Both the position numbers and the translations under genes were made by a program. From positions 351,177 to 415,176 of the forward strand of contig NZ_BCLI01000001.1 of assembly GCF_001748385.1 (NCBI RefSeq): a stretch of DNA of 64,000 nt, in the 5' to 3' direction. The DNA is from Vulcanisaeta thermophila. GTDB lineage: Archaea > Thermoproteota > Thermoprotei > Thermoproteales > Thermocladiaceae. The notes beneath the pieces were generated by a model. The model searched no databases, had not been told where the DNA came from, and saw only the letters and a list, made by a program, of their open reading frames with translations. This document shows positions 22,270-35,967 of this stretch, one piece after another; positions within the stretch are counted from its first letter, which is position 1, and each line of letters begins with the position of its first letter.

Positions 22270-24039
22270 ATGAGCACTAATTCACTTAGAGAGATACTTA
22301 AGGGTGCCATATGCAGAGATCGAGATCACGCCCTAGCATTCTTCCTCTGGGCATTCCTGAAATACGAACCTGAACACCTCAGACAGAATGCAGAATGGTT
22401 CGGGCTTAATGAGAGAATGCTCAATGATGTTGAAACTACTGTAAAGAATACCCTTGAGCAATTAAGGTTAACTTATGACTTCAAAATTAGTGAAGAGATT
22501 ACGAGAGCTGCTGCAGATTGTCTTGAGAACTTTAGCTTAGAATTTGAGAAGATCACTAAGGAAAGAGTCAGTAAGCTCACGGATCTAGAGAGGAGGGTAT
22601 TAAGGCATGCATCGCTCTGGATGCGCAACATGAAAACAACCCACTATTTATTTAATGATGATAAAAAGGTCTTTATAGCTGAATCAATAGATACTAATGA
22701 GCTTGTTGACTCATTATGTGTTGTCCTTAAAGCTGATTATTCTCAAATTTACGGCTTGGTGTACAGGATACTTGCACAGACAGGCCTTGCCTTTGCATAT
22801 ATTAGCGGTTCAAGTAGACATACTTACTACAGCATCATCATTCCGAGATATGCATTAAGCATAATCGAGGAGCTGGCAGTCGAGGCTGAGAAAGAACTTC
22901 AAAACGTTACCGAGAGACTACATAACTTAAACTCAATGCAATTAGCCGCTATTGCAGGTGGTTTCTTTGAGGCTGACAATACCTTTTACAATGTCTATGG
23001 AATTTCTCACTTTGAGTATTTACAGTCGTTAAATATTGAAGGTGTCTGCTATAAGGGGTATGTTAATTACTCACTGAAGGGCTTAATTACTAATTTCCTT
23101 ATAGAGATGGTTAATGAACGCTGTCAACGTCTATACAACCGCCTCTATAAGGTATTGAAGGATCAGGGTTATGAACTCGATATCGTAGACAAAGCTGATA
23201 ATAAACACCTTTACTGCAGAATTAAGGCAGTTAAACCAGGCCAGCACGCTGTAATTATCTATATCGAACCATTCGCATACAAACTCCCATTTCTTTATGA
23301 GAAGAGCGTATTAGTATTTGAGGGTCCCATAGCTAAGCCGGAGGAATTTAAGAACGTTGTGGTTGTAGGGATGAGTGAGGGCTTCGGTGGTGTAAAGGTG
23401 GTGGTTGATAATGCAGGTACTAGTTGGAGTAAAGATATGGTTGAGGCCTTTAATAGGCTATCATTACAACCAATGCCTTCGGAGCCTTCAGTTCAGGCAA
23501 AGCCTGCGGAGGAGCTTTCTTGGGAGGACTTGGAGGAGGCTGTTGTTGATGTGCTAGAGCGATTGGGTTTCAGGGGTATCTTTGGAAGGAGACCTGATAG
23601 GGATGTTAAGTTAGATGCTAGGGGTGGAGGTAAGATTGAGGTGGATGTTTGGGGCTGGAAGCAGGTTGGTTCAACTAGATTGAATATTTATGTTTCGTGT
23701 AAGAATTGGAATAGAGATGTTGATAGGAGTGTTGTAGATGAGGAGTTTGGGAGGACTTTACAATTGAATGAGATACCCCAGATCAAGGTCATAGTGGCTA
23801 AGAGATTCACAGACACTGCTAAGAAGGTTGCTCAGGCAGATGGTTTCATAGTTATAGAGTTGGGTGATGTATCAACGGTTGATGAAGCCCGTAACCTCAT
23901 ATACAAGCAATTAAGGGACTTCTTCACTGGAATAGCACCACCAGATCTCCAGAGACTAGCTAATGAGGTTAAGCAAATAACTGATAAACTGAGATCCATT
24001 GCTGACGAGATGGAGAAGCTGTCGGCATATTACAGTTAA
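22270..24039 (+). CDS. Large protein with C-terminal restriction-endonuclease-like (Mrr/PD-(D/E)XK) domain
   Basis: A 589-residue protein. About 400 N-terminal residues are mainly helical and have no motif I know. From about 415 a typical restriction-like module follows: LEEAVVDVLERLGF (first helix), KIEVDVWGW (E457, D459), then YVSCKNW with K478, and IPQIKVIVAKRFTDTAKKVA for the later strands. The usual E-x-K is S476-C-K here, so the catalytic acid is changed or supplied by another residue. A coiled coil (about 555-585) closes the protein. A defence or DNA-repair role is likely. The gene is single, with an AT-rich promoter before it; it lies just upstream of a run of broken genes. Confidence 0.6.
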   Translation: MSTNSLREILKGAICRDRDHALAFFLWAFLKYEPEHLRQNAEWFGLNERMLNDVETTVKNTLEQLRLTYDFKISEEITRAAADCLENFSLEFEKITKERVSKLTDLERRVLRHASLWMRNMKTTHYLFNDDKKVFIAESIDTNELVDSLCVVLKADYSQIYGLVYRILAQTGLAFAYISGSSRHTYYSIIIPRYALSIIEELAVEAEKELQNVTERLHNLNSMQLAAIAGGFFEADNTFYNVYGISHFEYLQSLNIEGVCYKGYVNYSLKGLITNFLIEMVNERCQRLYNRLYKVLKDQGYELDIVDKADNKHLYCRIKAVKPGQHAVIIYIEPFAYKLPFLYEKSVLVFEGPIAKPEEFKNVVVVGMSEGFGGVKVVVDNAGTSWSKDMVEAFNRLSLQPMPSEPSVQAKPAEELSWEDLEEAVVDVLERLGFRGIFGRRPDRDVKLDARGGGKIEVDVWGWKQVGSTRLNIYVSCKNWNRDVDRSVVDEEFGRTLQLNEIPQIKVIVAKRFTDTAKKVAQADGFIVIELGDVSTVDEARNLIYKQLRDFFTGIAPPDLQRLANEVKQITDKLRSIADEMEKLSAYYS

Positions 24040-25842: not shown

Positions 25843-27581
25843 TTGATTGATTACGCTGTCGTGAGGTTTCCTCAGTCGTACTTCATTAAGTGGCTTATCC
25901 TTGGGGTTATCCTCGGTGTGGTTTCCGGTGTTTCCGCCGTGATTTTCTACTTCGCATTGAAGTTCATGGAGTACCTCTTCATGGTTAAGCTTGTGGGTTT
26001 GTTACCACCTGAGCCTCTGGGTGATGGTGGTTCACTAAATTACACGTTTCATGCTTTAAGGCCCTGGTTGATACCGGTTTCCGTGGCCCTCGGCGGCTTG
26101 CTGTCAGGGCTTATTGTCTATACCTGGGCCCCCGAGGCTGAGGGCCATGGCGCTGACGCCGCCATAAACGCATTCCACAGGCTAAGGGGTGGATTAGGAG
26201 GAGGGTTCCACCGATAAAGCTCATTGCCTCAGCAATAACCATTGGGTCAGGGGGTAGTGCGGGTGCGGAGGGACCCACTTCGCAGTTGAGTGCTGGCCTT
26301 GGTTCATTAATTGCCGATTTACTTGGCTTGCCCGATGAGGATAGGAGGATTGCGGTTGCCGTGGGCATAGGCGCTGGTATTGGGTCCATATTCAAGGCAC
26401 CCATCGGCGGCGCACTACTGGCCTCGGAAATCCTGTACAAGAGGGATTTCGAGACCGAGGTCATCTTCCCAGCCCTCATCGCCTCTGCTGTGGGTTACCT
26501 AATCTTTGGTTCTGTGTTCGGTTTCACGCCAGTGTTTGGTTACTACCCTGGCGAATTCAACCCATCAACGCTGCCCCTTTACCTACTGCTTGGTGTTGTT
26601 GATGGCCTCATGGCAATACTATACGTTAAAACCTTCTACTCAGTAAATGGCTTCTTCAGGAGGATGAGGATCAGCAACTACGTAAAGCCCCTGATAGGGG
26701 GCTTGGTGGCTGGGTTCATAGGGCTTGTGGCCCCTGAAGTCCTGGGCACCAGCTATGGTTGGTCGAACCTGGCGGAGTTTAATAGGGTCTATGCCTTCAC
26801 ATCACTAATCCCAATGCCATTATTACTACTCCTCATTCTCCTACCATTCCTCAAGATCCTGGCCACCTCATTCTCAATAGGCTCAGGCGGTAGTGGTGGT
26901 GTGTTTGCCCCTGGCATAGTCATTGGCTCCTTCGTTGGTTACGACATGTGGCTCCTCTTCCACTACATAGCGCCCAACCCAGCGCCCTTCGTAATAGTGA
27001 GTATGCTTGCGTTCTTCGGAGCTGCGTCCAAGGCTCCCGTGGCCGTTATGTTCATGGTCGTGGAGATGACGGGCGGTTATAACCTACTGCCTGCGGCCAT
27101 GATAGCCGTGGCCATAGCCTACCTGGTATCTGGTGATTACACAATATTCCAGGCCCAGGTACCCACTAGGCGCGACTCGCCCGCGCATTTGAGTGAGTAT
27201 GAGAGGCCATTGCTTATGGAGTTGAGGGTTGGGGATTGCGAGTTGAGTGGAGAGCCCGTGGTTAATGTTAATGATGATTCTGAGAGGGCCGTGAACCTAA
27301 TGCTCAGGTTTAGATACACGGCAATACCCGTGGTTGAGGGTGATAGGTTCGTGGGCCTTGTGAGACTCTACGAGTTGGGCAGGGGTAAGGTGGGTAATTA
27401 CGTGATTAGGGACTCACCCTACGTAACGCCCAACTCCACGTTGTACGATGCATTGAGCATCATGGGTAGGTTGGGCATTAACTGGGTGCCCGTGGTTCAG
27501 GGCGGCAGGTTCCTCGGCATACTAACGCTCGAATCCCTCAACAAAACGTACACGGAGAGGTTGAGGGAGCTGCGTGGGTAG
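25843..27581 (+). pseudogene. CLC-type chloride channel/antiporter with two CBS domains, frameshifted
   Basis: Bases 25843-26217 encode the first 124 residues; 26193-27581, in another frame, encode the rest. At 26190-26193 one base is missing: the first frame runs to a stop at 26215, while the second picks up as IRRRVPPIKLIASAITIGSG. The join restores one CLC protein of about 580 residues with the selectivity-filter motif GSGGSAGAEGP (usual GREGP has R where A stands; the gating Glu is kept), the GSGGSGGVFAPG segment and two C-terminal CBS domains (about 430-570 of the joined protein). If the base is truly absent the channel is not made. Neighbours on both sides are also broken. Confidence 0.75.
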
Positions 27582-27635: not shown

Positions 27636-29286
27636 ATGGAGCCAGAGGTCCTCATAGACTCGTACAGCATAGACATAACCCTGGTTCAGGGAGTTAGCAT
27701 ATGAGGGTGCCGTGGAAATCAAGGTCCAATCAAGTGGTGACCTGGTTCTGGACGCCGTGGACCTGAGGATAAGGGGTGTGGAGGTTGATGGTAAGGCCGT
27801 GGATTACCAATACGATGGTAAGGCCCTGAGGATTAAGGGCCCAGTTAATGGGGTCGTTAAGGTGGTTTTTTGATGGTAAGGTCGCGGACAAGCTAATCGG
27901 TATCTACAGGGTGCCATACCAGGGCGATTACATAGTGACCACGCAGTTCGAACCCACGGGGGCCAGGCACTTCATACCATGCCTAGACAAGCCCTGGGCC
28001 AAGGCCAGGTTTAAGCTTAGGATTAGGGTTGATGGGGATTATGACGTGATATTCAACACACCGCCAGAGAGAGTTTACTGGGATGGTCAGTGAAAGGTTT
28101 TTGAGTTCATGGAGACCCCGAGGATGTCCACGTACCTACTCTATTGGTGTTTAGGCAGAGTAGGTTTAAGTTCATTGGCAATGAACCGAGCACCTGGCCC
28201 ATACCCATTATCTACAGGTCCGGTGACAAGACCTCGGTAATACTCATGGAGGAACAAACCCTAACCCTAGGCTCCGGCCGTGTGGAGTTCCTCAACGTGG
28301 ACGGCACCGGGTACTACAGGGTTAACCACGGAGATTGGGAGTACGCAATGAGCAACGCAGCCAATGACTATGAGAGGTGGAGCGTGATAAACGACGCCTA
28401 CGCACACCTCCTCCAGGGCACCCTGGACATTAATGAGTACCTAAACCTGATTAGGCGTGTGAGTAGGTCAGTCAATTACCTACTAACAACCACCGTAATC
28501 AGGCAGCTGAGGACGCTATACTCAATAAACCCAGCCCCGGTGAGGCAGGTACTCATTGACTACCTAAGAACATAGACAAAATCACTGGAGGACATAACCA
28601 ATCTGGAGGACTTCAAATCACTAATCGCAAGCCTACAACTAACAGCCACGGATGAATACTCAAGCCTAATCGCAAGCATACTGGATACGTACCAAAGGGG
28701 CCTTGATGACGTCAAGGAATTAATACTAAGCACCAGGGCATTGGTGGATGAGGAGTACGCAACCATAGTGGCAAACATGGTAAATAACTACCAATCCCTA
28801 GACCCAATAATGAGGAGGACAGCACTAAACGCATACGCCGTAGTCGGCGACAAACCCTTCGAAAAACTCTCACAACTCTACAGGTCACTGGGCAATGATA
28901 GGGATAGGGTCCTGGTACTCTCGGCAATGCTAAACATACCCAAACCCAGCGAGTACACCAAGACCCTGGAATTCATGAAGTCAGGCAAGGTTAAGAAGCA
29001 AGACCTAATATACTTCTCAGTGGGCGCCTCAAACCCATGGGTTAGGGAAGTAAACGCCACGTGGATCAAGGAGAACTACAAATTCATACTACAAGCCTTC
29101 GGAGACCCAGGAAACCTATCAAGACTACTAGTCCAATCAGTACCCCTCATATTCATAGGCCGCGAGGACGAAGCAAGGGAATTCCTAAGCAACCTCAACG
29201 TAAAGGGAACAGAAATAGGCATCAAGGAAAGCCTAGAACTACTAACCATATACTCAAGACTAAACAAACAAATAGAACAAAAATAA
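27636..29286 (+). pseudogene. M1-family aminopeptidase (tricorn-factor-like) pseudogene lacking its catalytic core
   Basis: The N-terminal domain survives in three frames: 27636-27704, from 27700 to 27873, and from about 27869 on, the last containing TQFEPTGARHFIPCLDKPWA, a strong M1 signature. Further lesions are a shift in a T6 run (27866-27871) and a TGA at 28091. METPRMSTYLLYW at about 28110-28148 is then joined directly to the C-terminal domain (RQSRFKFIGNEPSTWPIP, LNVDGTGYYRVNHGDW), so the middle 300-400 residues with GxMEN and HExxH are gone. A TAG at 28573 interrupts the C-terminal part, which continues in frame to 29286. Clearly a dead gene. Confidence 0.85.
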
Positions 29287-29599: not shown

Positions 29600-30820
29600 T
29601 TACATACGTATTATCCCGTTGGAGTATACCTTAGCTGCTTCAAGGGCCACGGCCTCGTGATTTGGGAGTATGTTCATTATGGAGGTGATCATACCCAATA
29701 AATGGTTAATACCCATCAGCACTATGCTTAATGATTGTGGATCATAAGTTATCACTTGACCAGAGGCTCTACTTATCTTCTCACTATAATTATTCATGAA
29801 TGTGATGTAGTAGTTCCTCGCTATTTCTAAGTCTATAAATTCGGATTCGCGGACTATATTATAGATTTGACCGTTCTTATTAACGAAGTTTAGGAAACAC
29901 GTGGTTCCCGCAATCTCCACCTCAACCCTATCCTCAAGCCCCTCAACGCAAGTTGAGAGGAACCTTCTAACTGTGGAGCCCACAACCCTAACTAAGTCCA
30001 TTAAGAATGCACGCTTACTGTTGTAAAACCTATAGAAGGTACCCACGGCATACCCAGCGTCATTGACTACCTCGGTGATCTTTGTTTCTCTGAAGGATTT
30101 TCTAGAGAGTAGTTTTAAAGCGGATATAATTAATCTCTTTTTAATACCAGTTATTCCCAATCTATTGTAGATACCATAATCCTCAGATAGAGTAATTATG
30201 TCTGGGACATAAATACTTATCCGTGACTTCACAAGCTCCGTAATCCTACTCATGGGTAGTGTCTTACCTAGTCCCTTAAGTAGTACATCACCAGCAATAT
30301 CGATGTCTAAAAGGACATTGCCAGCCACGCCGAGTATTTTACGGAAAAGGTGTATGAATTGTGATGAGCCTAAAATCATGGCCGAGATTACATGAGGATC
30401 CCCATGTATCCCCATATCTGTGAGGACGTTGGCCATGAAATTCAACAACTCCCTATAATAGGTACTGGCTAATTCCCTATCTATGAACTCTATCTCTCTG
30501 AGTACCCTATGTAATGCCAGCATACTTGGGTCGCCCCACAGTATCGTCATATACTTAACCATGGATCTAACAGTAAGCGTGGGATCACCAGGATGAATAA
30601 TGCCTTCGATGTTCAACTTAATCCTAGTTATGGAGTCGTTTATGTACTCTCTCAATATGTCCTCCTTAGATTTATAATTTAAGTAAAAAGTAGATACGGA
30701 AATCCCGGCTTCATGCGCTATATCTCTCATTGATATATCGAAATAACTCTTACTCATAAGTAATCTCGATAATGCATGAATCAGCCTATCCTTAATTCCA
30801 CGAGCTGAATCGTAAATCAT
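29600..30820 (-). CDS. Tandem double TetR-family transcription regulator
   Basis: A 406-residue protein made of two complete TetR units in one chain. The first DNA-binding domain is at about 8-60 (MRDIAHEAGISVSTFYLNYK) and the second at about 225-275 (ITEVVNDAGYAVGTFYRFYN). The ligand-binding parts are also duplicated: LREIEFIDRELASTYYREL (about 107-125) and RESEFIDLEIARNYY (about 330). A normal TetR is about 200 residues and works as a dimer, so this is a covalent pseudo-dimer that could read two different half-sites. It overlaps the acyl-CoA ligase stop by ATGA and is the second gene of that operon, so it probably controls fatty-acid or acyl-CoA genes nearby in response to an acyl-CoA. Confidence 0.8.
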   Translation of the reverse strand: MIYDSARGIKDRLIHALSRLLMSKSYFDISMRDIAHEAGISVSTFYLNYKSKEDILREYINDSITRIKLNIEGIIHPGDPTLTVRSMVKYMTILWGDPSMLALHRVLREIEFIDRELASTYYRELLNFMANVLTDMGIHGDPHVISAMILGSSQFIHLFRKILGVAGNVLLDIDIAGDVLLKGLGKTLPMSRITELVKSRISIYVPDIITLSEDYGIYNRLGITGIKKRLIISALKLLSRKSFRETKITEVVNDAGYAVGTFYRFYNSKRAFLMDLVRVVGSTVRRFLSTCVEGLEDRVEVEIAGTTCFLNFVNKNGQIYNIVRESEFIDLEIARNYYITFMNNYSEKISRASGQVITYDPQSLSIVLMGINHLLGMITSIMNILPNHEAVALEAAKVYSNGIIRM

Positions 30821-32409
30821 TGATTACCACATAGGTCATCAATATTTATATTTATACATGTTTCCATATCCAGCAGCTTGGATATGCATGATTTTATCCT
30901 AGCATAATCAACCTTACCCAACGCAGTCTTAGGTACCTTACCGAACCAGACGTACTTAGGTATTTTGTATTTAGCCAAAATATTAGTTAAGTACAGGTTA
31001 AGCTCCCTACAATCTATGGTGGCGTCAGGCTTCAGCTCTATAATGGCAGCCACAGCCTCACCCCACTTGGGGTCGGGGATCCCAAAAACCACAACATCAT
31101 TAACCGCCGGGTGTTGCCTAATGGCATCCTCAACCTCCATGGGATATACATTTTCACCACCAGTCTTAATCATTAATTTCTTCCTCCCAACAAAATAAAA
31201 GAAACCCTCGGCGTCATACATTAATAGGTCCCCAGTCTTAACCCAACCATCCTCAGTGATTGTTTCGTTGGTTTCATCAGGGCGATTCCAGTAGCCAGAG
31301 AAAGTCACGGGACCCCGAACCCAGAGCTCACCAACTTCATAGGGACCTGCTATAGTGCCATCATCCTTAACCAACTTAACCTCGACAAGAGCTGAAGGTA
31401 CACCAATACTTGTGTAGGATTTCTCTAGGGGCATATCTATTGGCGTGTAAAATAAGTTGGGACCAGCCTCGGTTAAGCCATAACCCTGAAAGAAGGGTTT
31501 ACCTTTCCTGCGGTATTTCTCGACTGTGGAGCGGGGAGTCATGCCACCACCACTCTTGAAGAAACGTATACTACTGAAATTACATTGATCGAATATACGT
31601 GATTGAGCCATCATAGTGAACATTGTGGGTACGCCAAGCTGCACGGTCACCCTCTCCTCCTCAATTAACCTCAGGGTCTCCTCGGGATCAAACTTCTTAG
31701 TTATGATTATCTTTCCTCCAATTAAATAGAGGGGAAGTGTTATTACATGCCATCCTCCTGTATGAAACATAGGAAAGATGAGTAATGACGAATCATCCTC
31801 CCTGAGTCCCCAGCTAATTACTGTGTTTAATGCATTACATATTGCCTGTCTATTACTTATAATCGCACCCTTAGGTTTACCTGTAGTGCCTCCTGTGTAG
31901 AGTATCATTGAAGGATCCTCGTCACTGATGGGCTTGTAATTCAAAGTAGCCAAATCCTGACTTACCGTATCCTGACTTGCCGTTCTCAATTCCTCAATGT
32001 TCTCCACGATAGGCAGGAAATCTAGTTTACGTATTAATTCTTCAAAATCTTCATGAATATAGAGAAGCTTAGGCTTAATGTCGTTTAGTATAAACTTCAC
32101 TTCATTAGTTGATAATCTATAATTTATAGGTACCAATATTGCACCTAACTTTATGGCAGCGAAGTAAAGAAAAATAAGTTGTGCAGAATTGTATGAGATT
32201 ACCGCGATACGATCACCATGACCTATACCATGTTTTTTCAAGTCCCTTGCTATGGATAAAGAAGCATCAAAGACCTGCTTAAATGTATATACCTCTCTAC
32301 GGCCCCATGAATAATCTACTATTGCCTCACGATTAGGTGTTAAGCGAGCTCTTACGCTCGAAAGATCAGGATTAATTGGACACGGTAGGTTATATTTGTG
32401 AGTCATCAT
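30817..32409 (-). CDS. AMP-forming acyl-CoA synthetase (fatty acid/aromatic acid CoA ligase)
   Basis: A 530-residue adenylate-forming enzyme that activates a carboxylic acid with ATP and CoA. The P-loop-like motif is LYTGGTTGKPKGA, followed by GYGLTEAGPN (A5), the hinge region WVKTGDL...YFVGRKK and the C-terminal catalytic lysine in PKTALGKVDY. The form fits long- or medium-chain acyl-CoA ligases; the exact acid is unknown. First gene of a two-gene operon with the double TetR regulator; the ATGA overlap makes translation coupled. A TATA-like element lies at about 32430-32438 and inverted repeats are further up at 32454-32494. Confidence 0.85.
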   Translation of the reverse strand: MMTHKYNLPCPINPDLSSVRARLTPNREAIVDYSWGRREVYTFKQVFDASLSIARDLKKHGIGHGDRIAVISYNSAQLIFLYFAAIKLGAILVPINYRLSTNEVKFILNDIKPKLLYIHEDFEELIRKLDFLPIVENIEELRTASQDTVSQDLATLNYKPISDEDPSMILYTGGTTGKPKGAIISNRQAICNALNTVISWGLREDDSSLLIFPMFHTGGWHVITLPLYLIGGKIIITKKFDPEETLRLIEEERVTVQLGVPTMFTMMAQSRIFDQCNFSSIRFFKSGGGMTPRSTVEKYRRKGKPFFQGYGLTEAGPNLFYTPIDMPLEKSYTSIGVPSALVEVKLVKDDGTIAGPYEVGELWVRGPVTFSGYWNRPDETNETITEDGWVKTGDLLMYDAEGFFYFVGRKKLMIKTGGENVYPMEVEDAIRQHPAVNDVVVFGIPDPKWGEAVAAIIELKPDATIDCRELNLYLTNILAKYKIPKYVWFGKVPKTALGKVDYARIKSCISKLLDMETCININIDDLCGNQ

Positions 32410-32429
32410 TCTAAAAACTGGTATTAGTA

Positions 32430-32438
32430 ATTTTTAAA
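32430..32438 (-). promoter_or_regulatory. TATA box of the acyl-CoA ligase/double-TetR operon
   Basis: On the minus strand TTTAAAAAT at about 32430-32438 is 21-29 bases before the ATG at 32409. It lies between the start codon and the inverted repeats at 32454-32494. Confidence 0.45.
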
Positions 32439-32453
32439 CATTACTTTCATATC

Positions 32454-32494
32454 ACGAATTCGTAGAGACTACGTATCAAGAAGATGTACGTAGT
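32454..32494. promoter_or_regulatory. Two inverted repeats upstream of the acyl-CoA ligase operon
   Basis: ACGAATTCGT at 32454-32463 is a perfect 10-bp palindrome. Beside it ACTACGTA (32468-32475) and TACGTAGT (32487-32494) form an 8-bp inverted repeat with 11 bases between. They lie 45-85 bases before the ligase start, upstream of its TATA box, as activator or repressor sites for the operon would. Confidence 0.5.
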
Positions 32495-32573
32495 GGATAA
32501 ATGAAGGACCATATCTAAAGGAGAAAAAGAGTATTTAAATTTTTAAAATTTATGTTTATATACATAATTATAT

Positions 32574-33947
32574 TTACTTGGATATTTCTTCAAGTCTTAA
32601 CTTTGTTGTCCTTGGCCCAGTTAGCACTATCGCTGTAGCTATTATTTCGAAGATACCCAGCATTACGAAGGTATATATTCCAGTGGTTACTGGTTTTGCT
32701 GGATCGAAAACTAGGTATATCAGGAAGGGCACCACTGCCCCACCTAAATGACCTATACCATCAGCCAGTGCGAAGCCTGTTGCTCTGGCTCTTGTCGGGA
32801 ATAGCTCAGCGGTGTATGTATATGCTGGTACCGCGAAGGCTGTCGCAAAGGCGCCTAGGAATGCACCTATAGTTAATACTACAGGTGAGAGTAGGTACAC
32901 GGCCAATGCATAGAGAAATACTGCCAACGTGGCTATGCTGAATGCCGAGGCCACTAAGTATTTTCTTTCCCATCTATCAGCTAGGGGTGCCATGGATAAT
33001 GCACCCACTATGTAACCAATACTACCTAGCGCTATGTACCAGGTCGCGCTTGTGAATGTGAAACCTGCGGGGATGAGTATGTATGGTGCGAAGCCTATGA
33101 CACCGTAGGCTAGCATGTAATCAAAAAACCAAAAAGCGATAGCCATAATAAGCCTAGGTAGGTATTGCCTATTGAATAACTCGGCTGTGGGGAATTTCTT
33201 TAAGAAGTTTTCAGGTAATGGGGCTGGTGTAGGTGGTAGAGTCCCTATTTTTCGTGCTACGTACTCCTCAAGTCTTTTCACGACAGCCTCAGCCTCATTG
33301 AAGCGGCCTCTTATCACTAGCCACCTTGGGCTCTCAGGTAAGAGCGTTCTCAGGGGGAAAACTGTAAAAGCCACTACTGCAGATATCCCGAACATCCATC
33401 TCCATCCTACTGGAGATAACGGAATCAATGCCAAAGCTATAAATGGAGTGACCGCGAAACCCAATGCACCAGCCAGGTATGTTAGTTGTACCATTTTGCC
33501 TCTGATTCCTGCTGGAGTAATCTCACTGATGTAAGTGTTTATTACTGCAATCTCTGCACCAATGCCCATACCTGCTATAAATCTGCTCGTAATTAATACA
33601 TAGAAATTCCCAGCTAAAGCACAACCTATTGATCCAATGGCTATTAGGATGGCATTGGTTATCAATCCCCATCTCCTACCGAAGTAGTCACTCACGGTAG
33701 ATACAAAATACGCACCTATTATGTAACCAATGAGACTTGCTGAGGCAATCTCGCTTAAGTTTAGACGTGAAAGTCTTAGTTGCGTTACCATTGGGGAAAC
33801 GAAGGAAAATGAGAGGATTAATATATCATAAAACGCAAAGAAATATCCAAGGCCTATTATGACCATCCAGGAAACTGGGTAAGGTCTGATGGGTAATCTA
33901 TCTATTCTTGCCCTTAATTCTCCGGCCTTGAGTTCCCTATCAGACAT
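32574..33947 (-). CDS. MFS transporter, sugar/aromatic-acid porter-like
   Basis: A carrier of about 457 residues with twelve helices, loop-2 motif DYFGRRWG, the ESPRWLVIRGRFNEAE segment after helix 6 seen in sugar and organic-acid porters, and the second-half motif DRWERKYLV. I place the start at the ATG 33947, because GGTGATC (a match to the 16S anti-Shine-Dalgarno region) sits three bases before it, inside the longer reading that would begin at 33962. It lies between the acyl-CoA ligase operon and the divergent condensing-enzyme gene, so it probably moves the organic acid handled by that cluster. Confidence 0.75.
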   Translation of the reverse strand: MSDRELKAGELRARIDRLPIRPYPVSWMVIIGLGYFFAFYDILILSFSFVSPMVTQLRLSRLNLSEIASASLIGYIIGAYFVSTVSDYFGRRWGLITNAILIAIGSIGCALAGNFYVLITSRFIAGMGIGAEIAVINTYISEITPAGIRGKMVQLTYLAGALGFAVTPFIALALIPLSPVGWRWMFGISAVVAFTVFPLRTLLPESPRWLVIRGRFNEAEAVVKRLEEYVARKIGTLPPTPAPLPENFLKKFPTAELFNRQYLPRLIMAIAFWFFDYMLAYGVIGFAPYILIPAGFTFTSATWYIALGSIGYIVGALSMAPLADRWERKYLVASAFSIATLAVFLYALAVYLLSPVVLTIGAFLGAFATAFAVPAYTYTAELFPTRARATGFALADGIGHLGGAVVPFLIYLVFDPAKPVTTGIYTFVMLGIFEIIATAIVLTGPRTTKLRLEEISK

Positions 33948-34033
33948 GCTGATCACCCACATACCTTAAATTCTTGTTTGTGCATTTTAATGGTATTTCC
34001 GCACATATTTCGAGAATTTTGAATTTCACATAA

Positions 34034-34051
34034 TGAATCACTATTCTAAAG
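34034..34051. promoter_or_regulatory. Operator-like repeat, left copy, in the MFS/KAS III divergent promoter
   Basis: TGAATCACTATTCTAAAG at 34034-34051 recurs in reverse orientation at 34119-34136 with 17 of 18 bases the same. Each copy holds a small dyad, GAAT-N4-ATTC. A repeated palindromic site in a divergent promoter is what a TetR-type or similar regulator would bind. Confidence 0.5.
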
Positions 34052-34108
34052 TATTTAAGCATTACCCTTAGTTTGCTTCGTAAGAATGACCGTAAATATC
34101 TAGCATAA

Positions 34109-34118
34109 TGTTTATAAG
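34109..34118 (+). promoter_or_regulatory. TATA box of the KAS III-like gene
   Basis: TGTTTATAAG at about 34109-34118 lies 26-35 bases before the ATG at 34144. It argues that the upstream ATG codons at 34108 and 34129 are part of the promoter and are not used. Confidence 0.55.
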
Positions 34119-34136
34119 CTTTAGAATAATGATTCA
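34119..34136. promoter_or_regulatory. Operator-like repeat, right copy, overlapping the KAS III-like gene start region
   Basis: CTTTAGAATAATGATTCA at 34119-34136 is the reverse complement of the site at 34034-34051 except for one base. It lies between the TATA box and the ATG at 34144, so a bound protein would block RNA polymerase. Confidence 0.5.
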
Positions 34137-34143
34137 CATAAAC

Positions 34144-35121
34144 ATGGCTGGGATTCTTAGTTATGGAATATATTTACCCCAAAGGAGAGTTACCGCCTCT
34201 GAGTTATCGAAGATTACTGGGATACCCTTAGAAATAATTGTGGAGAAGTATGGATTAAGAGGCAAAAGTGTTAGTGAACCTGCGGAGATGCCGTCAGAGA
34301 TGGCACTTAAGGCTGCCAAAGCAGCATTAAGCAAGGCTAATGTAAGGATAGATGCTTTGATCTATGTTGGTAGTGAATTCAAGGACTATGGGGTATGGAT
34401 GATGTCCACTAAACTGCAGCACGAATTGAACCTAAAGAATATTTTCGCCTTCGATATAGCTGCAATGTGCACAGGCATGATCGTTGGCTTAACCTTAGCG
34501 AAGAGAATGGGCGACCTAGCTAGAAATATACTACTCGTTGCTGCATCCAAGGAATCCTATTTAGTTAATCCAGAATTAAAGGATACGTCATGGATGCTGA
34601 ATTTCGCAGATGGGGCCTCAGCGGTAGTAGTATCCCATGATTATAATAGGAACAGGATACTAGAGAGCTCCTTTATAAGTGATGGCAGTTTCTATGGAGC
34701 CGCGGTGGTTAAGGAGCTAGGTGCCGTGAGCCTAATTGAGGATCACTCACAGAGACCCATGTTCGTAAGCCTAATGCGTAAGGATGAAATGAAATATAGT
34801 CTTGAAACTACAAGTAGAGCTAATTTCGTTAAGGTAATCAAGGACGCGCTGGATAAGAGCGGTTACTCAATTAAGGATGTGGATCTACTCATCTTAAATC
34901 ACATGAAGAGAAGCTTCCATGAGAAGATACTAAATGATCTGGGTATACCTAAGGAGAAGTCAATCTACCTCGAAGATTATGGTCACGTACAGAGTAGTGA
35001 CATGGTTATTGGGCTTGATGAAGGCTTAAGGAGAGGGCTTATAAAGGATGGTTCCATAGTGGTAATGGCTTCAGGAGGCACTGGATTTATATGGGGAGCA
35101 GTGGTTTTAAGGTGGGGTTGA
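34144..35121 (+). CDS. KAS III-like (3-oxoacyl synthase III / thiolase-fold) condensing enzyme
   Basis: A 325-residue thiolase-fold enzyme. The N-terminus GILSYGIYLPQRRV, the nucleophile Cys109 in DIAAMCTGM and the ending ASGGTGFIWGAVVLRW are those of FabH/HMG-CoA-synthase relatives, which join an acyl-CoA to a second acyl unit. His253 (LNHMKR) fits the active-site His. The third residue, Asn in FabH, appears to be His281 (EDYGHVQSS), so the triad may be Cys-His-His. The start at 34144 is set by the TATA box before it. The hydrolase gene starts right after the stop codon, so the two form an operon. Product unknown. Confidence 0.75.
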   Translation: MAGILSYGIYLPQRRVTASELSKITGIPLEIIVEKYGLRGKSVSEPAEMPSEMALKAAKAALSKANVRIDALIYVGSEFKDYGVWMMSTKLQHELNLKNIFAFDIAAMCTGMIVGLTLAKRMGDLARNILLVAASKESYLVNPELKDTSWMLNFADGASAVVVSHDYNRNRILESSFISDGSFYGAAVVKELGAVSLIEDHSQRPMFVSLMRKDEMKYSLETTSRANFVKVIKDALDKSGYSIKDVDLLILNHMKRSFHEKILNDLGIPKEKSIYLEDYGHVQSSDMVIGLDEGLRRGLIKDGSIVVMASGGTGFIWGAVVLRWG

Positions 35122-35967
35122 ATGCCGTACATACATTCAATTGATGCTAAGATATATTATGAAAGGATTGGCAATGGTCCAGCCCTAGTATTGATTGAAG
35201 GGCTAGGTTATTCCTCATGGATGTGGATTATGCAGAAGGAGGATCTATCTAGGGATCATGAGTTAATTATATATGATAATAGAGGTGTGGGTAAGTCCGA
35301 TAAACCCAATTATCCCTATACCATGGATCTTTTAGTGGAGGATCTAAGGAACCTTATTGATGCCCTCGGTCTAGATAAAGTACATGTATTGGGTGTATCC
35401 ATGGGCGGTATGGTGGCTCAATTATTTGCAATAAAATATCCCAGCCGCGTTAAATCATTAATACTAGTATCAACGCACCATGGAGGTAAGGATGTGGAAC
35501 CACCACCTAAAGAAACCCTTGAGGCCATGTTTGGGGAGCCACCACCCAACATTAAAAATGACGTAGAACTTTATCGCTATAAAATGAGCTATGCATTCTC
35601 GACAACATGGCTACAGAATAACAAGGATGTCCTGGATTACTTAATAAGCCTTAGATTAAGGGAGCCCCAACCCAAGGAGGCGTACTTAAATCAGGCCCAC
35701 GCAGCATTAACATTCGACGTATCTAACCAGTTATCGCAGGTAAGAGTACCTACTCTGGTGGTTCACGGCGATGAGGATAAGGTCGTCCCCATAACTAATG
35801 CATGTATGTTATTCAGGAAAATAGAGACAGCTAGTTTAGTAATATTTAAGGGGGCTGGGCATCTATTAATAATAGAACGGGCCAGGGACTTCAATAATTT
35901 AGTTAGGGGATTCATCAGGGATGTTGAGACTAATAACTATAAACCAAGGAGAATAATAGTATTATAA
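35122..35967 (+). CDS. Alpha/beta-hydrolase fold enzyme
   Basis: A 281-residue alpha/beta hydrolase. The nucleophile elbow is GVSMGG (Ser at about 94), the oxyanion region GLGYSSWMW is near residue 30, the acid DEDKV follows VHGD near 217 and the catalytic His is in GAGHLL near 249. The set is close to 3-oxoadipate enol-lactonases and other small-ester or C-C hydrolases. Its ATG follows the condensing-enzyme stop with no gap, so the two products should act in one pathway, perhaps cleaving or releasing the condensed acyl product. Confidence 0.8.
   Translation: MPYIHSIDAKIYYERIGNGPALVLIEGLGYSSWMWIMQKEDLSRDHELIIYDNRGVGKSDKPNYPYTMDLLVEDLRNLIDALGLDKVHVLGVSMGGMVAQLFAIKYPSRVKSLILVSTHHGGKDVEPPPKETLEAMFGEPPPNIKNDVELYRYKMSYAFSTTWLQNNKDVLDYLISLRLREPQPKEAYLNQAHAALTFDVSNQLSQVRVPTLVVHGDEDKVVPITNACMLFRKIETASLVIFKGAGHLLIIERARDFNNLVRGFIRDVETNNYKPRRIIVL

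What the first reader, a model, noticed from the sequence alone, without database searches (positions are those of the whole stretch)
29600..30820. Single-chain double TetR regulator
Two DNA-binding domains and two ligand domains, with similar sequence in both halves (EFIDRELASTYY versus EFIDLEIARNYY), in one 406-residue protein. TetR proteins normally act as dimers of identical chains; a fused pair can bind asymmetric operators and two ligands.
Basis: seen in the sequence. Interest (0 to 1): 0.65.

Follow-up and report, generated by a model that had tools for sequence, protein, structure and literature searches.

The report
Archaeal single-chain double TetR repressor
A hot-spring archaeon carries a gene switch in which two usually separate, identical repressor halves are fused into one protein and have become different, and the same lopsided DNA tag, found nowhere else in its genome, marks the three promoters it probably controls.

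Summary
In detail: 29600-30820 (minus strand) is one open frame of 406 residues with two TetR_N domains, each followed by a ligand-type domain; the halves align over 171 residues (26% identity). It is the only TetR in this genome, and the only doubled one among about 70 TetR_N matches in 299 sampled Thermoproteota genomes; all others sit in frames of 120-319 codons. Relatives keep one operon: MFS, hydrolase, acyl-CoA ligase, KAS III, single FadR-type TetR. Here the same five kinds of gene are rearranged around the double TetR, and all but the MFS come from a distant set. I found a candidate operator, TTTAGAATRRTGAYTCA: three exact copies in the genome, none other within one mismatch, one at each of the cluster's three promoters, all in the same orientation to transcription. 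Best reading: an acyl-CoA-responsive repressor folding into an intramolecular pseudo-dimer that binds an asymmetric site, as Mycobacterium tuberculosis Mce3R does. Mce3R and about 204 predicted actinomycete proteins make double TetRs a known kind; the archaeal case with FadR-type halves appears to be a new variant. 'Two ligands' is not supported. Fold, binding and ligand remain untested; AlphaFold2 was low-confidence.

The parts
29600..30820 (-). double TetR gene, 406 aa, stop codon included
   Evidence: open frame; two PF00440 matches
30647..30784 (-). N-half DNA-binding domain (TetR_N), recognition region AGISVSTFYLNYKSK
   Evidence: PF00440 match, E 9.7e-10 in the genome search
30263..30637 (-). 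N-half ligand-type domain (about residues 62-186), with REIEFIDRELASTYY
   Evidence: aligns to C-half ligand domain beyond all shuffles; boundaries approximate
30152..30262 (-). linker of about 37 residues (187-223); helix 190-214 in the model
   Evidence: between the two TetR alignments
30002..30124 (-). C-half DNA-binding domain (TetR_N), recognition region AGYAVGTFYRFYNSK
   Evidence: PF00440 match, E 2.8e-7 in the genome search
29603..29989 (-). C-half ligand-type domain, with RESEFIDLEIARNYY; like FadRSa
   Evidence: phmmer to 6el2 E 7.7e-22 over residues 229-377
30817..32409 (-). AMP-forming acyl-CoA ligase, 530 aa, overlaps the TetR start by 4 bases (ATGA)
   Evidence: PF00501/PF13193; acyl/feruloyl-CoA synthetase structures
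32574..33962 (-). MFS transporter, aromatic-acid/H+ symporter-like; orthologue 79% identical in relatives
34144..35121 (+). KAS III-like enzyme; start probably ATG 34144, not 34108
   Evidence: NCBIfam PRK06840 350.6 bits, over its cut-off of 315
35122..35967 (+). alpha/beta hydrolase
   Evidence: PF00561; esterase and C-C hydrolase structures
32399..32415 (-). candidate operator 1, TTTAGAATGATGACTCA, at the start of the ligase-TetR operon
34034..34050 (-). candidate operator 2, TTTAGAATAGTGATTCA, upstream of the MFS gene, just after a TATA-like box at 34051-34059
34120..34136 (+). candidate operator 3, TTTAGAATAATGATTCA, between TATA-like box 34111-34118 and ATG 34144 of the KAS III gene
32468..32494 (.). 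perfect inverted repeat ACTACGTA-N11-TACGTAGT upstream of the ligase gene, of unknown role; alternative or second site

Best explanation
A transcriptional repressor whose two TetR units, fused in one chain, fold against each other as an asymmetric pseudo-dimer. Its two different recognition helices bind the non-palindromic element TTTAGAATRRTGAYTCA, which lies just downstream of the TATA-like box at the MFS and KAS III promoters and over the start codons of the ligase-TetR operon, where it would block the general transcription factors or RNA polymerase. An acyl- or aryl-CoA made by the neighbouring ligase binds the ligand domain, releases the repressor and switches on uptake (MFS), activation (ligase) and processing (KAS III, hydrolase) of an organic acid. 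The regulator represses itself through the ligase promoter. Shown: gene structure, domain make-up, synteny, the three genome-unique elements. Inferred: fold, DNA binding, repression and ligand.
For: Two TetR_N domains in one frame. Halves similar over both domains. C half closest in the PDB to FadRSa, which represses by binding a 16-bp dyad and is released by acyl-CoA (PMC6449355). Only TetR of the genome, overlapping an acyl-CoA ligase gene by 4 bases. Homologous five-gene set with a single TetR in relatives. TTTAGAATRRTGAYTCA: 3 exact copies and no other within 1 mismatch in 2.02 Mb, all three at this cluster's promoters and co-oriented; at up to 3 mismatches 49 hits against 49 for the reversed-pattern control. 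In dinucleotide shuffles the divergent region never gave a 16/17 inverted match (0 of 150), and the ligase region gave a third match of 15/17 or better in 2 of 2000. Recognition helices differ: the glycine that FadRSa needs (G48) is G in the C half and S in the N half. Precedent: Mce3R, 406 aa in the PDB chain, binds a nonpalindromic site as an M1-M2 fold (PMC11667970). Mce3R was also the top Foldseek match of the model, E 1.4e-3 (weak, low-confidence model).
Against: No binding or expression data. The AlphaFold2 model does not resolve the ligand domains or the interface. The element has a semi-palindromic core (GAAT-N4-AYTC, 8-10 of 12 positions), so a symmetric dimer could in principle bind it. 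It could belong to the core promoter or to another regulator. No orthologue of the double protein exists in the data to test conservation of the operator.
Confidence: 0.6

Rival explanations
1. Domain-swapped homodimer: two chains pair N with N and C with C, making two symmetric repressors with two palindromic operators and possibly two ligands.
For: It was the alternative model seriously considered for Mce3R. A separate perfect inverted repeat lies at 32468-32494.
Against: In Mce3R the cryo-EM structure excluded it (PMC11667970). The shared element here is asymmetric and always oriented with transcription.
Confidence: 0.12
2. Only one half does the DNA and ligand work; the other is a degenerating copy that serves as a built-in dimerisation partner.
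For: The N half is the more diverged half: its matches outside this protein are weak (E 1e-9 to 1e-7, mostly to the HTH alone) and it has S in place of the glycine essential in FadRSa.
Against: Both halves score as TetR_N, both HTHs are modelled with high confidence, and the N-half HTH keeps the FY..YKSKEDI signature.
Confidence: 0.15
3. Two neighbouring TetR genes joined by a sequencing or assembly error.
For: Possible internal starts exist (ATG 190, TTG 221). Two neighbouring genes (CLC channel, M1 peptidase) are broken into pieces.
Against: The frame stays open through a 37-residue linker while both other frames are full of stops. Codon-position G+C is alike in both halves. The gene lies well inside a 792-kb contig of a 99.8% complete genome. 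A colinear double TetR occurs elsewhere in nature.
Confidence: 0.06
4. The shared element is not the TetR operator but a promoter element or the site of another regulator; the double TetR binds elsewhere, for example the 8-11-8 inverted repeat at 32468-32494.
For: The element sits next to TATA-like boxes, and the inverted repeat is perfect and unique in the window.
Against: No other place in the genome carries the element within 1 mismatch, so it is no general promoter element. The only TetR of the genome sits in the same cluster.
Confidence: 0.15

Closest known systems
Mce3R (Rv1963c, Mycobacterium tuberculosis; PDB 9b7y), prototype of double TFRs
   Same: Two TetR units in one chain of about 400 residues; different recognition helices; control of lipid metabolism genes and of its own gene; asymmetric operators (PMC11667970).
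   Different: Archaeal; no full-length sequence match (the phmmer hit to 9b7y covers only the C-half HTH, E 6e-4); candidate operator of 17 bp rather than 25 bp, one per promoter; halves of the FadR/acyl-CoA type. Pseudo-dimer not demonstrated.
FadRSa (Saci_1107, Sulfolobus acidocaldarius; PDB 6el2/6en8)
   Same: C half is about 30% identical and aligns over most of the TetR fold; cluster with acyl-CoA enzymes; single homologues stand in the equivalent operon in related genomes.
   Different: FadRSa is a single-unit homodimer that binds a 16-bp dyad; here two diverged units are fused and the element is asymmetric.
Double TetR WP_330112370.1 of Cetobacterium somerae plasmid p2
   Same: Colinear match over 98% of the protein (E 1e-13 pairwise); lies among CoA-transferase, thiolase and acyl-CoA dehydrogenase genes.
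   Different: Only 20% identical, from a bacterium; the trees cannot tell common descent of the fusion from a parallel fusion.
Engineered single-chain TetR (scTetR)
   Same: Two TetR units in one chain (own knowledge; the name occurs in papers).
   Different: Artificial fusion of two TetR copies (own knowledge).

Membership tests
TetR family (PF00440) | N-terminal TetR_N helix-turn-helix | tested here: met
   two matches, both halves
TetR family (PF00440) | all-helical C-terminal ligand/dimerisation domain | tested here: inconclusive
   C half aligns with FadRSa over most of the fold and the halves align with each other; AlphaFold2 low confidence there
double TFR (Mce3R kind) | two complete TetR units in one chain | tested here: met
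double TFR (Mce3R kind) | intramolecular N-C pseudo-dimer | tested here: inconclusive
double TFR (Mce3R kind) | binds a nonpalindromic operator | not testable with these tools
   candidate asymmetric element found; binding needs experiment
Mce3R orthologue | full-length sequence relationship to Mce3R | tested here: not met
   only the HTH of the C half matches 9b7y, E 6e-4
FadRSa-type acyl-CoA repressor | sequence relationship to FadRSa | tested here: met
   C half E 7.7e-22 to 6el2; N half only weakly
FadRSa-type acyl-CoA repressor | single-unit homodimer on a 16-bp dyad | tested here: not met
   double unit; a dyad TTGAYT-N4-ARTCAA was not found in the window at up to 1 mismatch
FadRSa-type acyl-CoA repressor | release by acyl-CoA | not testable with these tools
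   needs purified protein

The most novel reading that the evidence does not exclude
An archaeal FadR-type repressor became a natural single-chain heterodimer, and its operator lost symmetry with it: the element reads TAGAAT-RRTG-AYTCAY in the same 16-bp frame as a predicted FadR dyad TTGAYT-N4-ARTCAA, with two unlike half-sites. It would be a captured case of a symmetric repressor-operator pair turning asymmetric, separate from Mce3R.
Probability: 0.3. Interest if true: 0.7.

Novelty: new variant of a known kind. Interest (0 to 1): 0.5.

Why it matters
The only double TetR repressor with a solved structure that I found is a bacterial one, Mce3R. A second one from a thermophilic archaeon, with a single-unit homologue in the equivalent operon of sister species and with three ready-made candidate sites, would let one test how a symmetric repressor becomes a directional one, and whether asymmetry is used to set the orientation of binding at promoters. 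A heat-stable single-chain repressor with an asymmetric site would also be a useful part for archaeal genetics.

Tried and rejected
Full-length relatives were sought in 101 near genomes and 398 of the phylum, GTDB contigs, viral contigs, plasmids and phages: only the Cetobacterium protein matches end to end. Trees of the halves neither support nor reject a common origin of the two halves (p-AU 0.32), so duplication versus fusion stays open. The palindrome TTGACAGGTGGGTCAA at the MFS start of most single-TetR relatives looked like the ancestral operator, but TTGAC-N6-GTCAA occurs 3-4 times per genome and part of it is coding sequence, so it is only a hint. The half-site reading of the window element against the FadR-like dyad scores 8 of 12 in all three copies, but a shifted frame scores nearly as well (24 against 23). 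AlphaFold2 with one sequence failed (pLDDT 43); with 11 rows it gave 62. An OleABC-like role for the ligase/KAS III/hydrolase trio was considered from memory; no OleA or OleC structure was named among the listed matches, and it was dropped.

Full report
CHECK OF THE OBSERVATION. The frame 29600-30820 on the minus strand codes for 406 residues without a stop. Pfam finds TetR_N twice. The two halves align over 171 residues with 26% identity; the score lies far above 1000 shuffles, also for the ligand domains alone. So 'two TetR units in one chain' is right. Y[YF]) occurs in single acyl-CoA-type TetRs of alphaproteobacteria (loci L142-L148, several of which sit beside enoyl-CoA hydratase, AMP-ligase and MaoC genes). 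It marks the family, not a recent duplication.

IS IT REALLY ONE GENE? Both other frames are studded with stops around the junction, codon-position G+C is alike in the halves, and I saw no strong internal start (sequence reading). The gene lies in a 792-kb contig of a 99.8% complete genome. Reads were not available, so an error is unlikely rather than excluded. The gene starts inside the last codons of the acyl-CoA ligase gene (4-base overlap), which suggests translational coupling.

HOW RARE. TetR_N occurs in this genome only in this gene. In 299 sampled Thermoproteota genomes about 70 TetR_N matches were found; all others lie in frames of 120-319 codons. No full-length relative was found in 398 phylum genomes. 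The one end-to-end match elsewhere is a 373-residue double TetR on a Cetobacterium plasmid, 20% identical, among CoA-transferase, thiolase and acyl-CoA dehydrogenase genes. The genome is probably a Vulcanisaeta (inferred from the sizes of its complete relatives, e.g. 2,298,983 bases for G004, and from the V. moutnovskia FadR homologue named in PMC6449355).

SURROUNDINGS. In six other genomes of the genus, in G020 of the same family and in G302 of another family, the same kinds of gene stand in one row: MFS, alpha/beta hydrolase, acyl-CoA ligase, KAS III, single FadR-like TetR (some draft copies are broken). In the window they are split into TetR<-ligase, MFS<- and, divergently, KAS III->hydrolase. 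The MFS is orthologous (79% to G004, where G004 to G302 is 83%), but the hydrolase, ligase, KAS III and TetR are only 30-46% identical to those of G004, while G004 and G302 share 62-70%. So the double TetR belongs to a distinct set of enzymes standing beside the native transporter. The KAS III gene passes the NCBIfam model PRK06840; the MFS resembles aromatic-acid/H+ symporters; the ligase resembles acyl- and feruloyl-CoA synthetases. The module looks like uptake and CoA activation of an organic acid (inference).

CANDIDATE OPERATOR. Reading the promoters showed a shared element. TTTAGAATRRTGAYTCA has three exact copies in 2.02 Mb, none other within one mismatch, and they sit at the three promoters of the cluster (32399-32415, 34034-34050, 34120-34136); at up to three mismatches the genome count equals the reversed-pattern control (49 and 49). 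All three point the same way relative to transcription; two lie immediately downstream of a TATA-like box and the third overlaps the ligase start codons about 15 bases after one. The pattern was derived from these copies, so the less biased test is the shuffle: a 16/17 inverted match in the divergent region occurred in 0 of 150 shuffles, and a third copy of 15/17 or better in 2 of 2000. Relatives with a single TetR lack it (no match under 3 mismatches). Its core is semi-palindromic (GAAT-N4-AYTC), its flanks are not.

A POSSIBLE LINK TO THE FADR OPERATOR. Upstream of fadR in Sulfolobaceae loci I see TCGACTCAAAAATCAA (twice) and TTGACTCAGTAATCAA, in line with the published 16-bp dyad of FadRSa, whose letters were not available in the text. 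The window element in the same frame reads TAGAAT-RRTG-AYTCAY, a dyad with unlike halves. The frame is the best of 29 but only just (24 against 23 of 36). I treat it as a suggestion.

MECHANISM. By homology to FadRSa (acyl-CoA releases it from DNA; PMC6449355) and by likeness to Mce3R (M1-M2 fold, one ligand-binding domain, nonpalindromic operator; PMC11667970), the most likely mechanism is a single-chain pseudo-dimer repressor, induced by a CoA ester made by the cluster's ligase. The recognition regions differ between halves (AGISVSTFYLNY and AGYAVGTFYRFY); the glycine essential in FadRSa (G48) is kept only in the C half. 'Two ligands' is not favoured: Mce3R has one composite ligand domain. 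Mce3R also dimerises further, which could apply here.

LIMITS. Structure prediction did not resolve the interface (pLDDT 62, pTM 0.42); Foldseek put Mce3R first (E 1.4e-3), which for a low-confidence model shows little more than the domain order. Trees do not settle whether the halves arose by duplication or by fusion of two relatives. No paper on an archaeal double TetR was found in the held library, which lacks many subscription papers.

VERDICT. Real, and of a known kind (double TFR; 204 predicted in Actinomycetes according to PMC11667970), but apparently a separate archaeal variant with a testable candidate operator.

Noticed in passing
window 27848-29286 (+): M1-family aminopeptidase remnant in three frames (27848-28093, 28144-28575, 28741-29286; the last matches PF11838 ERAP1_C): a decayed gene beside the double TetR.
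   Followed up: no
window 25843-27581 (+): CLC chloride channel with CBS domains apparently split by a frameshift (25843-26217 and 26286-27581).
   Followed up: no
window 32468-32494: Perfect inverted repeat ACTACGTA-N11-TACGTAGT between the MFS and ligase genes; unique in the window, role unknown.
   Followed up: partly
window 30820-35967: Hydrolase, ligase, KAS III and TetR are far more diverged from congeners (30-46%) than the congeners are from another family (62-70%), while the adjacent MFS is orthologous (79%): a sign that the enzyme-regulator set was replaced from outside.
   Followed up: partly
L031 3992-5113 (Cetobacterium somerae plasmid p2): A bacterial double TetR, annotated only as TetR/AcrR regulator, inside a CoA-transferase/thiolase/acyl-CoA dehydrogenase operon.
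   Followed up: partly
L074 3963, L075 13969, L077 14396, L078 14126, L079 3604: Palindrome TTGACAGGTGGGTCAA over the start of the MFS gene in single-TetR relatives, possibly the FadR-type operator; TTGAC-N6-GTCAA also occurs 2-3 times elsewhere in the two complete genomes tested.
   Followed up: partly
L024 964 and 1423; L025 972 and 1423; L029 1426: 16-bp dyads TCGACTCAAAAATCAA (two identical sites) or TTGACTCAGTAATCAA near fadR in Sulfolobaceae-like genomes.
   Followed up: partly
window 22270-24039 (+): 589-aa protein with an Mrr-type restriction endonuclease domain (PF04471).
   Followed up: no
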